The notes under the pieces: model-generated
The model's input: the letters and a program-made list of their open reading frames with translations, nothing else
Databases searched by the model: none
Told to the model about the DNA's origin: nothing
In this document: positions 22,304-46,668 of the stretch, in pieces
How the letters are laid out: each line of letters opens with the position of its first letter
How positions within the stretch are numbered: the first letter of the stretch is position 1
Program-made: the position numbers and the translations under genes
Assembly (NCBI RefSeq): GCF_030655195.1
Contig: NZ_JAURWA010000114.1
Span: 62,001 to 126,000, forward strand
DNA from: Patulibacter sp.
GTDB taxonomy: Bacteria > Actinomycetota > Thermoleophilia > Solirubrobacterales > Solirubrobacteraceae
DNA: 64,000 nt
Direction: 5' to 3'

Positions 22304-24442
22304 ATGCACCGTCCCCTCCGGGCCGCCTCGCGTGCGGCGGCCCTGGCCGCCGTCCTCTCGGCCGCCCTCGCCGCCCCGGCCGTCGCCCAGGACGTCCCGG
22401 CCCCGGCGACCACGGCACCCGCGTCGCCCACCACCCCCGCACCACCGGCGACGCCGGACCCACCGACCACCCCGGTCCCCCGTCCCGCCGCCACGCCGCC
22501 GACGGCCGGCGGGCGGTACTACGCCGGTCCCGCCGACCGCTGGACCGTCGGCGGCGCCTGGCTGGTCCGGCGCGACCAGGGCATCGTCGGACTGAAGAGC
22601 GCGTGGCAGCGGCAGCGGACCGCCACCGGCTGGACGCCCACGTCCGTGCCCGACGTCTGGAACGCGGGGGACAACTCGCCCGCCTCCCAGGCCGGCGGGG
22701 TCGTCTGGTACCGCCGCGAGCTGCGCCTGCCCAGGATCGAGAAGGCCCGCCGCGGGGGCCTGTTCCTGCTGCGCTTCGAGCGTGTCTCGGTCGCCGCGAC
22801 CGTCTGGGTCGACGGGGTCCGGGTCCGATCGCACCGCGGTGCCTACGAGCCGTTCTCGGCGACCATCCCGGCCTCGCAGGCCAAGGACGGCCGCGTCAAC
22901 GTCGTCGTGCGCACCGACAACCGCCGCAACGTCGGCGACTTCCCGCCGGGGTCGACCCAGAAGGACGGGACGCCCGGCGGCGGCTGGTGGAACGACGGCG
23001 GCATCCCGCGCGAGGTCGGGCTGCGGTACGCCGACGGCATCGACCTCTCGCCGGTCCAGGTCACCCCCGACCTGCCCTGCGCGACCTGCTCGGGCGTGGT
23101 CCGCTTCCGCGTCACCGCCACGAACTACGCACGCAAGCGCAGTCGCGTCGCCCTGACCGGCCGCATCGACGGCCGCACGGTCCAGCTGGGCCGCGTGTCG
23201 CTCGCCCCGACCGCCGCGCTCGGACGCTCCCGCGCCACGACCGTCTCCGGCACGATCAAGGTCCCCAGGCCCCGCGTCTGGTCCCCGAAGGACCCCGAGC
23301 TCTACGACGTCGCGGTCGAGGCCCGGCTGCTGGACGGGAAGCGCGAGGGGCAGCGGGTCGCGCGCTACCGGCTGCGCACGGGCATCCGCTCGATCAAGGT
23401 CGTCGGGGGTCGCCTCAAGCTCAACTTCAAGGGCGTCGACCTGCGCGGCAGCGGCGTCCACGAGATGGACGTGCCCAACGGCAGCGCCCTGACGGACGAG
23501 GGGCAGGACACGCTGCTCAGACAGGTCCGCGCCCTCGGCGGCCTCGTGATCCGCGGGCACTACCCGTTCCACCCGCGGATCCTGGAGGAGGCCGACCGCC
23601 AGGGCCTCCTCGTGTGGGCCGAGATCCCCGTCTACCAGGTGCGTCAGTCGCAGCTGGCGCGCGACGTCATCCGGCAGAACGCGATGGACCTGCTGCGGAC
23701 CACGATCCAGGTCAACGCCCACCACCCGTCGGTCTTCACGTGGTCGGTGGCCAACGAGCTGACGACGAACCCTGGGGCGCCGATCGTCCGCTACATGCAG
23801 GAGGCCCGCAAGGTCGTCGACACCTACGACCCGACGCGCCCGATGGCCTACGCGCGCCAGTCCGGCGTGAAGTACGGCTGCGTCGGGGCGTACGGGCCGG
23901 TCGACATCCTCGGCCTGAACGACTACTTCGGCTGGTACGGCGGACCGAACGAGCCGCTGGCGGATCCGGCGCAGCTCGGGCCGTTCCTCGACGCCCTGCA
24001 CGCCTGCAACCCCCGCGAGGCGATCATGATCACCGAGACGGGCGCCGAGGCCAACCGCGACGGGCCGGTCACCGAGGCCGGCACCTACGCCTTCCAGGCC
24101 GCCTACGCCGCCCACCACTTCGCGGTCTACCGGTCGCGTCCGTGGTTGGACGGGGCGATCTGGTGGGGTCTGCGCGAGTTCCGCGTCCGCCCGAACTGGG
24201 GCGGGGGCAATCCACGGCCGACGCCGCCCTGGCACGGCAAGGGCCTCCTGGGCCGCGACGCCGGCTTCTCGAAGAAGCCCGCCTGGCAGGTCCTGCACGA
24301 CGAGTTCCGCGGCGTCGACCAGACGGCGCCCGCGCCGACCACGCCGGTGACCATCCCGCCGTCCCCGCCGGGACGCACGTCCACGGACGGGACGGGGGAG
24401 GACGGCGACCCCGCCGACGGCGTGGCGTCCCCCGGGGCCTGA
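22304..24442 (+). CDS. Secreted glycoside hydrolase family 2 protein
   Basis: 712 aa. A signal peptide (about 1-28, ending APAVAQ) is followed by a Thr/Pro-rich linker (30-65). A galactose-binding-like sandwich domain spans about 70-235 (YRRELRLPRIEKA and NDGGIPREVGLRY). A GH2 Ig-like domain spans about 240-370, and a TIM barrel about 370-650. Acid/base Glu485 is in SVANELT and nucleophile Glu578 in MITETGAEA. GH2 members are beta-galactosidases, glucuronidases or mannosidases; the specificity is not readable here. The Pro/Thr/Gly tail (about 670-712) has no obvious anchor. Probably polysaccharide scavenging outside the cell, like the neighbouring protein at 20799. Confidence 0.88.
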   Translation: MHRPLRAASRAAALAAVLSAALAAPAVAQDVPAPATTAPASPTTPAPPATPDPPTTPVPRPAATPPTAGGRYYAGPADRWTVGGAWLVRRDQGIVGLKSAWQRQRTATGWTPTSVPDVWNAGDNSPASQAGGVVWYRRELRLPRIEKARRGGLFLLRFERVSVAATVWVDGVRVRSHRGAYEPFSATIPASQAKDGRVNVVVRTDNRRNVGDFPPGSTQKDGTPGGGWWNDGGIPREVGLRYADGIDLSPVQVTPDLPCATCSGVVRFRVTATNYARKRSRVALTGRIDGRTVQLGRVSLAPTAALGRSRATTVSGTIKVPRPRVWSPKDPELYDVAVEARLLDGKREGQRVARYRLRTGIRSIKVVGGRLKLNFKGVDLRGSGVHEMDVPNGSALTDEGQDTLLRQVRALGGLVIRGHYPFHPRILEEADRQGLLVWAEIPVYQVRQSQLARDVIRQNAMDLLRTTIQVNAHHPSVFTWSVANELTTNPGAPIVRYMQEARKVVDTYDPTRPMAYARQSGVKYGCVGAYGPVDILGLNDYFGWYGGPNEPLADPAQLGPFLDALHACNPREAIMITETGAEANRDGPVTEAGTYAFQAAYAAHHFAVYRSRPWLDGAIWWGLREFRVRPNWGGGNPRPTPPWHGKGLLGRDAGFSKKPAWQVLHDEFRGVDQTAPAPTTPVTIPPSPPGRTSTDGTGEDGDPADGVASPGA

Positions 24443-42535: not shown

Positions 42536-43237
42536 GTGCCGATCGCGCGCCCCGAGTACGGACCGTCGCTGAAGGACATCGCCGGCCCGCGTCTGGCCGC
42601 GCTGCGCCGCCCCGTCCGCTGGGCGATCCTCGCGGCGCCCGTCGTCCTCCTCCTGCTCGTCGCGGCCGTCGCGTACGCCCGGCGCGACGTCGTGACGCAG
42701 GCCGTGATCCGGGGTCCGCTGACCTTCAACACCCGCTACGACGCCGGCCTCGAGCGCGTCCGGGCCGGCACGGGGGAGCTGCTGCACCTGCGGACGAAGC
42801 CCGGCGAGGGCCGCGGCGTCGAGGACCTCGTCTACCGGGACGCCGGCCCCGCGCCGGCACGGATCGAGCCCGCCGGCGGTCCGATCGCCCAGCTGGCGCT
42901 CCGGGCCGACGACGTGATGCGTCCGCTCCGCGCGACGCTGCAGGACTACCAGGTCCGCTCCGCGGGCCGCATCCGCATCGGCAGCGACTACGGCGGCTGG
43001 ATCGTGCGCTACCAGTTCAAGCGCCGGATCCCGGGCGACACGACCACGCAGGCCCGCACGTTCTTCGGCGCCCGCGTGCTGCTGCTGCCCGACGCCCAGG
43101 GCACGAAGGAGCGGGTCCTCGACGTGTCGCTGCAGAGCCAGCGGTCGCAGGTCGTGTCGAACATCAGCGAGGTCGGCGGCAACGGCCCGATGCGCACCCC
43201 GTTCTACGGCGTGGCCTTCGGGACCGAGAAGCCCTGA
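42536..43237 (+). CDS. Membrane-anchored protein of unknown function
   Basis: 233 aa. The cytoplasmic N-terminus (1-27) is followed by one TM helix (about 28-47, WAILAAPVVLLLLVAAVAYA). An extracytoplasmic domain (50-233) has TFNTRYDAGLERVR, IRIGSDYGGWIVRYQFKRR and SEVGGNGPMRTPFYGVAFG. No catalytic motif was seen and no family recognised. Convergent with the sigma-factor gene. Confidence 0.7.
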   Translation: MPIARPEYGPSLKDIAGPRLAALRRPVRWAILAAPVVLLLLVAAVAYARRDVVTQAVIRGPLTFNTRYDAGLERVRAGTGELLHLRTKPGEGRGVEDLVYRDAGPAPARIEPAGGPIAQLALRADDVMRPLRATLQDYQVRSAGRIRIGSDYGGWIVRYQFKRRIPGDTTTQARTFFGARVLLLPDAQGTKERVLDVSLQSQRSQVVSNISEVGGNGPMRTPFYGVAFGTEKP

Positions 43238-43321: not shown

Positions 43322-44824
43322 CTACGGCTGCGGGGTGACCGGCAGCTGACCGGTCGCGCCGGGTGTCGGCGTCGGCGCCGGCGGCGCGGGGGACGTCGAC
43401 GTGGTCGGCGGCTGCTTCGGCGTCGTCGTGGTCGCCGGGGGCCGGGTCGTCGTCGGGGCGGTGGTGGTCGCGCCGGCGGGCGGCAGGACGACCGTCTGCT
43501 CGCCGGTGTCGGCCGGGACGGGGGCGGTCGTCGTCGGCGCCGTGGTGGCCGGCGTCGTCGTCGTGCCCGTGGTCGGGGCGGCCGTGACGCCGGTGCCCGT
43601 GGTGGAGGGCACCGTGTCGGTCGTCGTCGTGGACGGCGTCGTCGTGGTCGTCGTCGCGGTGGTGGGGCGCGGCTGTCGGCGCTCCTCCGTCGTGACCGCG
43701 GCGGAGGCGACGGCGGCGGGCAGGCCGCCCGTCGTCGTCCCGCTGGCCGGCGCGACCCGGCGGGGCGTCGTGGACACGCGGACGCTCGGCGCCGCGACGG
43801 GGGCGGCCGCGCGCGTGGCGGCGCGGACGTCGATCGAGGCGCCGGCGGAGTCGTACCGGCCGCGTGCGTGGTCGACCTCGACGGCACCGGCCGTGAAGAT
43901 CGCCGCGGCGGCGAGGCCGGCCGCGGTCTTCGACGCGATCGCGCTGACGCCCGTGGTCAGGACGCCGCCGGTCACGGAGCCGGCCGCGACGCTGCCGACG
44001 GCCGCGCCACCGGAGGCGCCGGCGCCGGCCGTGGCGTGGGCCAGCAGCTTCTTCACGATCACGAGCGGGCCGATCGGGAAGATCGCCTGCAGCGAGCGGT
44101 TGTTCGCCTTGAGGTGGGTCTGGAACGCGGCGCAGCGCTCGCACTCCTTGACGTGGCGCCGGACCGGCGGGGAGACGCGTTGGAGCGACTCGGAGACCTG
44201 CCCGAGCTCGTCGCGGACCTCCTCGCAGGTGAGGTTGCGCGCCTCGGAGGCCTCGGCCAGTGCGACGCGGGCGCGGACCAGCAGCGACTTGACGCTGGGC
44301 ACCGTGGTGTCCATCGCCTCGGCGATCTGGTCGTACGAGAGGGCGTCGATCTCGCGCAGGAGGAGCGCGGTGCGCTGGGTCTCGGGCAGCGCCTTGACGT
44401 CGCCGAGCAGCTCGCGGAACTCCTCGCGGCGATGCGCGGTGTCCGCGGCGGAGATCCCGTGGTCGGCCATGCGGTCGTCGAGCGTGTCGACGCCGATCGG
44501 CTGGATCTTGCGCAGGTGGTTCAGGCAGCGGTTGCGCGCGATCCGGTAGAGCCACGGCCGCACGTTGATCGCCCGGTCGTCGCCGATGATCGCGTTGAAG
44601 GCGTTGGCGAAGACCTCCTGCAGCACGTCCTCGGCGTCCTCGCGCGAGCCGAGCATGTGGCGGCAGAACGCCAGGAGCCGCGACTGGTAGCGCTGGACGA
44701 GCGTCTCGTAGGCCGCCTGGTTGCCCCGACGGGTCAACGTCACGAGCCGCTCGTCGCCCTGCAGGCGCAGGAGCGTCGACGGGCCTCGGAGGGCTGGGGC
44801 GGTGTCGAGTGCGGAAACTTCCAT
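43322..44824 (-). CDS. ECF sigma factor fused to zinc anti-sigma domain, TM region and Thr/Pro tail
   Basis: 500 aa from ATG 44824 (ATG 44869 would add 15). The sigma-2 region spans about 25-100 (YETLVQRYQSRLLAFCRHML, EDVLQEVFANAF, RPWLYRIARNRCLNHLR). The sigma-4 region is at about 130-185 (LPETQRTALLLREIDALSYD, AEAMDTTVPSVKSLLVRAR). A zinc anti-sigma motif then follows in the same chain: Cys200 and His224-x3-Cys228-x2-Cys231. Residues about 260-315 are Ala/Gly-rich and hydrophobic, probably spanning the membrane. The last about 170 residues are Thr/Pro-rich and likely extracytoplasmic. The layout resembles ECF groups with fused C-terminal anti-sigma extensions: a sigma factor held at the membrane until released. 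Confidence 0.88.
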   Translation of the reverse strand: MEVSALDTAPALRGPSTLLRLQGDERLVTLTRRGNQAAYETLVQRYQSRLLAFCRHMLGSREDAEDVLQEVFANAFNAIIGDDRAINVRPWLYRIARNRCLNHLRKIQPIGVDTLDDRMADHGISAADTAHRREEFRELLGDVKALPETQRTALLLREIDALSYDQIAEAMDTTVPSVKSLLVRARVALAEASEARNLTCEEVRDELGQVSESLQRVSPPVRRHVKECERCAAFQTHLKANNRSLQAIFPIGPLVIVKKLLAHATAGAGASGGAAVGSVAAGSVTGGVLTTGVSAIASKTAAGLAAAAIFTAGAVEVDHARGRYDSAGASIDVRAATRAAAPVAAPSVRVSTTPRRVAPASGTTTGGLPAAVASAAVTTEERRQPRPTTATTTTTTPSTTTTDTVPSTTGTGVTAAPTTGTTTTPATTAPTTTAPVPADTGEQTVVLPPAGATTTAPTTTRPPATTTTPKQPPTTSTSPAPPAPTPTPGATGQLPVTPQP

Positions 44825-44894
44825 GGCGATGCCGGACGCGTGGGGACCGTCCAGTCCCCGTTGGAACACGGCGGACCGCCCCGAGTTGCGGACC

Positions 44895-44914: not shown

Positions 44915-45048
44915 TCGGGCGAGGACCTGTCCGTAGACCGTAGCCCTCGTTGGTAAAGGCGCCGCAAACGGCCGCCCGGGCCGCCGACGCGGTCCACCCG
45001 GCGGCGGGGACCGAGGAGCCGCCCCGACTCCTGGGAGAATCCCCGGCC

Positions 45049-46668
45049 GTGGCCCGGCGCCCCCTCCACTCGCTGCACCGCCGTCTCGGCGAGCGCTACC
45101 CCGCGGTCGCGCTCTCGCTCGTCCTCGCCCAGGCGCACCTGGTCGTCCTCGCGGCGATCCTGATCCTCATGCGGTTCCTGGACCTCCCGGCGGGCGGCTG
45201 GCTGCTGCTGATCGGCATGTCGCAGGCGCTGACCCTGGCCGAGAACGTCCTGGTGATGGCCACCGCCTGGTACCACCTGCGGCCGTTGCGGGCGTGGGAG
45301 GCCCACGAGCGCGGCGGCGGGGAGGAGGGGATCGTGTCGGCGCGGGCGACCGAGGCCTGGCGCGCGCTCGTCGTCCTGCCGCTGCGCCTGGTCGGCGCGG
45401 GCGCCGCGGCCCGGACGATGCTCTGGGCCCTGACCATGGTGGTCGCGATCTGCCTGGTGGCGGACCTGGCCGTGTGGCCGGGTGGCGTCGTCCTGATCCT
45501 CGCCGCGTCGGTGGTCCTCCTGGCGGGCGTGCTGATCCGCTACCTCGAGGTCGAGCTCGTCCTGCGCCCGGTGATCGAGGTCGTCGCGCCGGGACTCGAC
45601 GACGACGCGGTCCTCGACCGCTCCCTCTCCCTGCGGATGCGCCTCCTGGCCGGGGTCCCGCTGACGACGGTCGTGACCGGCGGCGTCGTCGCGAGCTTCA
45701 GCACGAGCGACCAGGGCCTCGCGGACTTCGGGGTCGGCATCGCCATCGCGCTGGTGAGCGCGGCGACGATCGCGACGCTGCTGGCGGCGCTCCTGGTCCG
45801 GAGCTTCGTCGCGCCGATCAACGAGCTCCGCGCCACGATGCAGGCGATCCAGGGCGGCGACCTCGACCGGCCCGCGGCGATCCTCGGCGGCGACGAGATC
45901 GGCCGGCTGGCGCGGCAGGTGAACATCGGCCTGCGCGGCCTGCGCGAGCGCGACCGGCTGCACGAGGCGTTCGGCACCTACGTCGACCCGGCGATCGCCT
46001 CGCGGGTCCTCGACGAGGGGCCCCAGCTGGAGGGCACGGTCATCGAGGTCACGGTCGCCTTCATCGACATCCGCGGCTTCACCGCCTTCGCGGAGGGCTC
46101 GACCCCGACCGAGGTCTTCTCGCTCCTCAACGAGTTCTACGGCGTCGTCGTCCCGGTCGTGGAGCGCTACGGCGGCCACGCCAACACCTTCCAGGGCGAC
46201 GGGCTCCTGGCCGTCTTCGGGGCGCCGACCGAGCTGGAGGACCACGCCGACAGCGCGGTCACCGCCTCGATCGAGGTCGCCCGCGCGGTCCGCCAGCACT
46301 TCCGCGGCGACCTGCGCCTGGGCATCGGCGTGAACTCCGGTCCGGTCGTCGCGGGCACGATCGGCGGCGGCGGACGGGCCGCGTTCACCGTCATCGGCGA
46401 CCCGGTCAACACCGCCAGCCGCGTCGAGGCGATCACCCGGCAGACCGGCGATGTCGTGCTCTTCACGGAGGAGACGCGTCGGCGCCTGAAGCGCGACCAC
46501 GGCACGATCTCCGCGCGGCCGCCCGCGCCCGTGCGGGGGAAGCGCATCCCCGTGCGCCTGCACGCCCCGCTGCTCGGCGGACGCGTCGAGGAGCCGCTGC
46601 CGACGCTCGAGGACGGCCTCGGCCGCCTGCTCGCGCGGCCCGACGGCGGCGGCCCTCCGGGACGGTAG
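45049..46668 (+). CDS. Membrane class III adenylate/guanylate cyclase with HAMP domain
   Basis: 539 aa from GTG 45049 (a TTG at 44950 is possible). Six or so TM helices are at about 15-250, in the style of mycobacterial Rv1318c-type cyclases. A HAMP domain is at about 255-310 (APINELRATMQAIQGGDLDR). The catalytic domain starts at about 325: metal Asp340 in VAFIDIRGFTAFAEG and Asp384 in QGDGLLAVFGAP. The purine-selecting pair is unusual: the usual Lys is Thr380 (NTFQGD), while Asp451 (VIGDPVN) is kept. The substrate may therefore differ from plain ATP, or activity may be low. GGGAGAAT lies 8 nt upstream, and GAGAAT could be a -10. Divergent from the sigma-factor gene. Confidence 0.85.
   Translation: MARRPLHSLHRRLGERYPAVALSLVLAQAHLVVLAAILILMRFLDLPAGGWLLLIGMSQALTLAENVLVMATAWYHLRPLRAWEAHERGGGEEGIVSARATEAWRALVVLPLRLVGAGAAARTMLWALTMVVAICLVADLAVWPGGVVLILAASVVLLAGVLIRYLEVELVLRPVIEVVAPGLDDDAVLDRSLSLRMRLLAGVPLTTVVTGGVVASFSTSDQGLADFGVGIAIALVSAATIATLLAALLVRSFVAPINELRATMQAIQGGDLDRPAAILGGDEIGRLARQVNIGLRGLRERDRLHEAFGTYVDPAIASRVLDEGPQLEGTVIEVTVAFIDIRGFTAFAEGSTPTEVFSLLNEFYGVVVPVVERYGGHANTFQGDGLLAVFGAPTELEDHADSAVTASIEVARAVRQHFRGDLRLGIGVNSGPVVAGTIGGGGRAAFTVIGDPVNTASRVEAITRQTGDVVLFTEETRRRLKRDHGTISARPPAPVRGKRIPVRLHAPLLGGRVEEPLPTLEDGLGRLLARPDGGGPPGR

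What the first reader, a model, noticed from the sequence alone, without database searches (positions are those of the whole stretch)
43322..44824. Sigma factor, zinc anti-sigma motif and external tail in one polypeptide
Sigma-2 and sigma-4 regions are followed in the same chain by Cys200, His224, Cys228 and Cys231 (an Hx3Cx2C anti-sigma zinc motif), a hydrophobic region and about 170 Thr/Pro-rich residues. A self-inhibited, membrane-tethered sigma factor would need proteolysis or a redox signal for release. Fused ECF groups are known; this one pairs with a divergent cyclase.
Basis: partly seen in the sequence, partly recalled or inferred. Interest (0 to 1): 0.6.

Follow-up and report, generated by a model that had tools for sequence, protein, structure and literature searches.

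The report
Sigma factor carrying its own inhibitor
This Patulibacter gene makes a transcription-switch protein with a zinc-binding inhibitor-like part built into the same chain; most sampled genomes of its order have it, and many relatives share an upstream promoter-like motif through which it may switch itself on, but the idea that it sits in the membrane rests on a weak hydrophobic stretch and needs testing.

Summary
Window 43322-44824 (minus) encodes a 500-residue ECF sigma factor with a CHCC zinc anti-sigma motif (C200, H224, C228, C231), a weakly hydrophobic segment and a 175-residue Thr/Pro/Ala-rich tail in one frame. All 51 complete orthologs compared keep the four zinc ligands. In a sample of the order, 111 of 121 genomes match the sigma-plus-zinc part at E<=1e-40. 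The spacing fits the published ZAS definition, CHCC (RsrA-like) type.

The membrane tether is not shown. The segment scores dG +0.45 to +2.22 in the 51 orthologs, in the range of soluble window proteins and unlike its clear membrane proteins. By layout it corresponds to the hydrophobic helix of ECF52-like proteins, so a weak anchor remains possible.

New here: an ECF-like promoter motif 36-108 bases upstream of the start in 31 of 51 orthologs (shuffles: mean 0.5; other genes: 2 of 319) suggests autoregulation. The divergent cyclase is a neighbour in the eight Patulibacter loci but in 1 of 36 others.

Fused sigma/anti-sigma proteins (ECF48, ECF52, ECF53) are known. This is a lineage of that kind without the ECF52 carbohydrate-binding domain.

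The parts
43322..44824 (-). whole gene: ECF sigma factor fused to zinc anti-sigma-like domain and low-complexity tail, 500 aa
   Evidence: translation; 111 of 121 sampled genomes of the order match the query of residues 1-254 at E<=1e-40
44507..44701 (-). sigma region 2 (residues 42-106)
   Evidence: PF04542, E 1.7e-17; 51 of 51 orthologs
44258..44392 (-). sigma region 4 (residues 145-189)
   Evidence: PF08281, E 6.2e-14; 51 of 51 orthologs
44027..44233 (-). zinc anti-sigma-like domain (residues 198-266), four predicted helices; ligands C200, H224, C228, C231
   Evidence: ligands 51 of 51; AlphaFold helices 200-212, 219-227, 229-248, 251-266; zf-HC2 hit at E<=1 in 25 of 51 orthologs' segments, not in the window's own
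43931..44026 (-). Ala/Gly/Ser/Val-rich uncharged linker (residues 267-298)
   Evidence: sequence; pLDDT under 50 at 268-307
43874..43930 (-). weakly hydrophobic segment (residues 299-317), K299 and G313 invariant; possible membrane anchor
   Evidence: 51 of 51 for K299 and G313; dG +0.45 to +2.22
43325..43849 (-). Thr/Pro/Ala-rich tail (residues 326-500)
   Evidence: composition; short motif TxxLP in 22 of 51 orthologs against a mean of 5.5 and a largest of 13 in 200 shuffles
44865..44889 (-). ECF-like promoter motif GCAACT..CCGTGTT upstream of the gene, probable autoregulation
   Evidence: one of 4 such sites in the own genome; only one in the window, 0.06 expected; recurs upstream of orthologs
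44950..46668 (+). divergent protein with HAMP and class III nucleotide cyclase domains and hydrophobic helices (exact start not settled)
   Evidence: PF00211, PF00672; adjacent in the eight Patulibacter loci examined

Best explanation
It is an ECF sigma factor locked by an anti-sigma domain in the same chain. In the resting state the zinc-bound CHCC domain (residues 198-266) folds back on the sigma domains: its first helices on region 4, its last helix (251-266) on region 2. The chain is probably also held at the membrane by the weak segment 299-317, leaving the tail outside. Loss of zinc or disulfide formation between C200 and C228/C231, proteolysis, or both, would free the sigma part. The sigma part then transcribes its own gene from the conserved upstream motif. 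Shown: the domain order, conservation of the zinc ligands, presence in most sampled genomes of the order, and the recurring promoter-like motif. Inferred: in-cis inhibition, zinc binding, the release signal, self-transcription and the membrane anchor (the anchor about 0.55 likely on its own).
For: Sigma domains in 51 of 51 orthologs; zinc ligands in 51 of 51. Spacing C-x23-H-x3-C-x2-C fits the published ZAS definition (passages: fourth ligand 23-26 residues before HxxxCxxC; the Cys type is the one that RsrA uses to sense disulfide stress). Four-helix layout is as described for class I anti-sigma domains, where helix 1 binds sigma4 and helix 4 binds sigma2 (PMC7406223, passages). None of the four neighbouring proteins scanned looks like a separate anti-sigma factor. 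ECF-like motif upstream in 31 of 51 orthologs, shuffles mean 0.5 and at most 2, other genes 2 of 319; in the 121-genome scan 24 of 58 strict sites (my count) lie just upstream of the ortholog. Anchor: same order of parts, with a lysine and then a hydrophobic helix, in two ECF52-like proteins carrying an NPCBM domain (L192, L194); three paralog C-termini tested give SH3-family matches below the curated cut-off, E 2e-4, 0.07 and 0.13. Four Peptidase_M50 matches, the family of site-2 proteases, in the own genome.
Against: In none of the 51 orthologs does segment 299-317 score below dG 0; the window proteins Ppx (+0.16) and the MBL-fold hydrolase (+1.98), both soluble by family, score alike. The zinc domain modelled alone has no significant PDB match, and its profile finds no known anti-sigma chain in the PDB. 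zf-HC2 matches are weak; for the window's own segment the only Pfam hit is an unrelated one (Complex1_LYR_1, E 0.012, below cut-off). pTM of the whole model is 0.44, so the packing of the zinc domain on the sigma domains is not predicted with confidence. Strict motif sites elsewhere are near chance (34 against 24 in the reversed control, my counts), so no wider regulon is visible.
Confidence: 0.6

Rival explanations
1. Soluble redox or zinc switch: the protein is cytosolic, segment 299-317 is a buried or dimer-forming helix, and the tail stays in the cytosol. Release is by oxidation of the CHCC site alone, as for RsrA.
For: Weak hydrophobicity in 51 of 51 orthologs; CHCC type as in RsrA; soluble class I anti-sigma factors are more often zinc-binding (about 72%, PMC7406223, passages); no recognised outer domain in the 51 tails at E<=0.01, apart from one weak fvmX2 hit whose place I did not check.
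Against: The segment's position matches that of ECF52-like proteins with a clearer hydrophobic helix (dG -1.01 and -0.73); a long Thr/Pro-rich tail is more usual outside the cell (established knowledge, not tested: one search found too few other such proteins).
Confidence: 0.3
2. The zinc domain is only structural and the sigma factor is constitutively active; the tail is a passive extension.
For: For RsiW the zinc motif is reported as structural rather than sensory (PMC7406223, passages); in-cis inhibition is not shown for this protein.
Against: Zinc ligands conserved 51 of 51; in ECF52 a truncated SCO4117 without zinc finger and membrane part went with activated expression of its own gene (PMC5826349, passages).
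Confidence: 0.08
3. Assembly or frameshift artefact joining two genes.
For: One near relative (L009, L029) has its contig end inside this region, so the repeat-rich part is hard to assemble.
Against: 51 complete orthologs, named isolates among them, have the same single frame; GC3 0.95-0.99 along the window gene.
Confidence: 0.01

Closest known systems
ECF52 (SCO4117 of Streptomyces coelicolor)
   Same: Sigma domains, zinc finger, Ala/Gly-rich linker, lysine followed by a hydrophobic helix, Pro-rich extension, one chain, Actinomycetota (PMC5826349, passages; L192 and L194, taken as ECF52-like by their layout).
   Different: No carbohydrate-binding (NPCBM) domain in 51 orthologs at E<=0.01; weaker hydrophobic segment (+1.95 against -1.01 and -0.73); 22-24% identity; separate branch in the tree.
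ECF48 and ECF53 fused sigma/anti-sigma groups
   Same: C-terminal extension up to 400 residues with zinc finger and one or two predicted membrane helices (PMC8999054, passages).
   Different: Group assignment could not be tested: the classification models are not in the libraries here.
RsrA and other CHCC zinc anti-sigma factors
   Same: Cys 23-26 residues before HxxxCxxC; four helices.
   Different: RsrA is a separate soluble protein; here the domain is fused to its sigma factor. No significant fold or profile match of the isolated domain.
IutY of Pseudomonas putida (ECF243)
   Same: Membrane anti-sigma factor fused to the C-terminus of the sigma factor, activated by proteolysis (PMC8999054, passages).
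   Different: Iron-starvation system of a proteobacterium; no zinc motif is mentioned for it in the passages I saw.

Membership tests
ECF sigma factor (group IV) | regions 2 and 4 present | tested here: met
   PF04542 and PF08281 in 51 of 51; PDB matches to SigE, AlgU, SigW, SigH
ECF sigma factor (group IV) | no region 3 domain | tested here: met
   No Sigma70_r3 hit in the window protein at E<=1
ZAS (zinc anti-sigma) domain | HxxxCxxC with Cys or His 23-26 residues upstream | tested here: met
   C200, H224, C228, C231, distance 24, 51 of 51; definition from PMC4960319 (passages)
ZAS (zinc anti-sigma) domain | anti-sigma domain fold or profile match | tested here: inconclusive
   Four helices but no significant PDB match; zf-HC2 at E<=1 in 25 of 51 segments, window's own not among them
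ZAS (zinc anti-sigma) domain | binds zinc and inhibits the sigma factor | not testable with these tools
   needs purified protein or a reporter
ECF52 | zinc finger and Pro-rich extension after the sigma domains | tested here: met
   (tail 55 T, 31 P, 30 A of 175)
ECF52 | transmembrane region | tested here: inconclusive
   dG +0.45 to +2.22 in 51 orthologs; parameters recalled from memory
ECF52 | C-terminal carbohydrate-binding module | tested here: not met
   NPCBM in 0 of 51 at E<=0.01
ECF48 / ECF53 | sequence group of the sigma domain | not testable with these tools
   classification HMMs not held; the 2021 reclassification paper is not held

The most novel reading that the evidence does not exclude
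A near-universal stress switch of the order in which sigma factor, redox-sensitive zinc lock and autoregulated promoter form one gene, working without a partner protein and without the membrane: oxidation or zinc loss opens the chain in the cytosol and the tail tunes the lock. That would be a one-component, self-contained counterpart of SigR-RsrA.
Probability: 0.2. Interest if true: 0.6.

Novelty: new member of a known kind. Interest (0 to 1): 0.35.

Why it matters
Fused sigma/anti-sigma factors are known, but a 2022 review names IutY as the only sigma factor with such an extension whose release by proteolysis was characterised (PMC8999054, passages). This lineage is in most sampled genomes of an order, often with a conserved putative self-promoter, so it offers a natural reporter for testing whether such fusions are opened by redox, by zinc loss or by proteolysis.

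Tried and rejected
Clear transmembrane helix: looked for with a dG scan and Kyte-Doolittle in 51 orthologs and not found at segment 299-317.

Fold of the zinc domain: the isolated model gave no PDB match at E<=0.001 and a best VIA Z of 3.5; a missing match does not show that the fold differs. The A2 profile against PDB sequences gave three designed proteins at E 0.83-0.95.

Wider regulon: one pattern search had a spacer one or two bases too long (9 sites, 1 of them an ortholog's own promoter, against 7 in the reversed control). The corrected one found 58 sites in 46 of 121 genomes, 24 of them (my count) just upstream of the ortholog; the other 34 are close to the 24 of the reversed control. 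I did not check what lies downstream of those 34. None of the five Patulibacter genomes in that sample has a site with that strict pattern; in the own genome a looser pattern gave 4 sites, one of them this promoter, and the other three were not followed.

Promoter caveat: the motif was first seen by eye in the same upstream regions and the pattern written afterwards, so the shuffles do not correct for that choice. The 22 orthologs not used for the matrix (20 without a pattern match, and two with a shifted spacer) have best matrix scores from -4.4 to 31.8; several look like a GCAAC/GGAAC box at a like spacing, but some score no better than control genes (99th percentile 5.6).

Tail outside the cell by composition: of 376 called genes, 20 had such a stretch; 3 were counted as non-sigma, one of which (L079) is itself an ortholog, and none of the 3 scores below dG 0, so no statistic.

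Tree: most fused sigma factors lie in one part of the tree, but one fused protein (L139) lies in the neighbouring group and one unfused (L008) among them; deeper supports run from 0.001 to 0.776, and only the ortholog clade is firm (0.999).

Selection of the 51: out of those read, I left out cut ones, second copies of the same locus, and one complete ortholog (L078) without a reason; genomes whose locus I did not fetch are not in it.

Literature: searches for Patulibacter, Thermoleophilia or Solirubrobacterales with sigma-factor terms showed no title on this lineage; two searches listed only 20 of 667 and 15 of 119 papers. Only listings were seen, so this is no proof of absence. [quoted passage not shown] mentions Patulibacter) was seen as a listing only. 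Of PMC8999054, PMC5826349, PMC4960319 and PMC7406223 I saw passages found by term, not the whole text.

Full report
Observation. The gene at 43322-44824 (minus) encodes 500 residues. Pfam gives sigma region 2 at 42-106 and region 4 at 145-189. The window lies in a 4.55-Mb genome; the nearest named relatives are Patulibacter species. The start codon agrees with orthologs, which begin with the same residues.

Conservation. All 8 genomes of the genus have it. In a sample of 121 genomes of the order, 111 match the query of residues 1-254 at E<=1e-40, 80 of 83 among the good-quality ones. In five of the 111 (G064, G078, G083, G084, G111) the best match is weaker than 1e-80 and may be a paralog; 10 genomes have no match at that threshold. 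I assembled a set of 51 complete, distinct orthologs. All 51 keep C200, H224, C228 and C231 and K299 and G313.

Zinc domain. PMC4960319 (passages) defines ZAS proteins by HxxxCxxC with a Cys or His 23-26 residues upstream; here the distance is 24 and the residue is Cys, as in RsrA, which senses disulfide stress. AlphaFold gives helices 200-212, 219-227, 229-248 and 251-266, in line with the class I anti-sigma layout in PMC7406223 (passages). The whole model has pTM 0.44, so domain packing is not settled. The domain alone has no significant PDB match. zf-HC2 is matched at E<=1 by 25 of 51 segments, not by the window's own; in the full-length scan at E<=0.01 it is matched by 1 of 51.

Membrane question. 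The best segment in the C-terminal part of the window protein is 299-317, dG +1.95; the same scan gives -2.61 for the cyclase and -3.33 for the 232-aa neighbour, but +0.16 for Ppx and +1.98 for the MBL-fold hydrolase. Over 51 orthologs this segment ranges from +0.45 to +2.22; a second segment at about 243-268 ranges from -0.06 to +2.77 there, and one ortholog (L081) reaches -0.28. Patulibacter paralogs with the zinc motif show the same layout with dG 0.24-1.39, leaving out one cut short (2.92) and one with masked bases. Of three paralog C-termini tested, one matches an SH3 family at E 2e-4 and two at 0.07 and 0.13, all below the curated cut-off. I rate an anchor at about 0.55.

Tail. 175 residues, mostly T, P and A. 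A short motif TxxLP occurs in 22 of 51 tails against a mean of 5.5 and a largest of 13 in 200 composition shuffles; it too was picked after looking at the alignment. The full-length scan at E<=0.01 finds one further weak hit, fvmX2 in one ortholog (E 0.0056), whose place I did not check.

Promoter. Upstream regions share a GCGCAACTT..GCTACGGTGTC-like element. 31 of 51 match the pattern within 300 bases (shuffles mean 0.5, at most 2), and 2 of 319 other genes do. The matches begin 36 to 108 bases upstream of the start codon. In the window the site is 44865-44889, the only one in the window. Across 121 genomes, 24 of 58 strict sites (my count) are just upstream of the ortholog. This fits positive autoregulation, usual for ECF factors; that this sigma factor itself reads it is inferred.

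Neighbours. The divergent cyclase is adjacent in the eight Patulibacter loci examined (window, L009, L013, L014, L099-L102). Among 36 loci outside the genus (L079-L098, L103-L118) it is adjacent in L115 only, with cyclase-like matches 3.8-6 kb away in six others; some loci are cut short. In the 40 loci L079-L118 the MBL-fold gene is found within reach in 24 and Ppx in 18 (my count). So the cyclase is not a general partner.

Placement. PMC8999054 (passages) describes ECF48, ECF52 and ECF53 as fused with zinc finger and membrane helices, and PMC5826349 (passages) describes SCO4117. The present protein probably works like these but lacks the ECF52 carbohydrate-binding domain (0 of 51) and is not filed there. 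In the tree it forms its own clade (0.999) near other fused sigma factors, with weak deeper support (0.001 to 0.776). Verdict: real, orderly, of a known kind; the new points are its presence across the sampled order, the probable self-promoter and the doubt about the membrane anchor.

Noticed in passing
window 42536-43237 (+): About 232-aa protein with one clear membrane helix (dG -3.33) and no Pfam or NCBIfam match at E<=1, convergent with the sigma gene; a cluster found in 13 of 41 loci has it downstream on the opposite strand.
   Followed up: partly
L002, L003, L005 (own genome): At least three further sigma factors with a fused zinc motif in the own genome (weaker matches were not read); L003 ends in a weak SH3-like match, E 0.07.
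   Followed up: partly
window 43325-43849 (-): Short motif TxxLP (for example GEQTVVLP) recurs in 22 of 51 otherwise variable tails.
   Followed up: partly
window 22304-24442 (+): 712-aa called gene with a signal-peptide-like start and a Thr/Pro-rich stretch directly after it.
   Followed up: no
L020: Demequina aurantiaca fused sigma factor of about 1070 aa with zinc motif, hydrophobic helix (dG -0.73) and a long Gly/Ser/Thr-rich C-terminal part.
   Followed up: no
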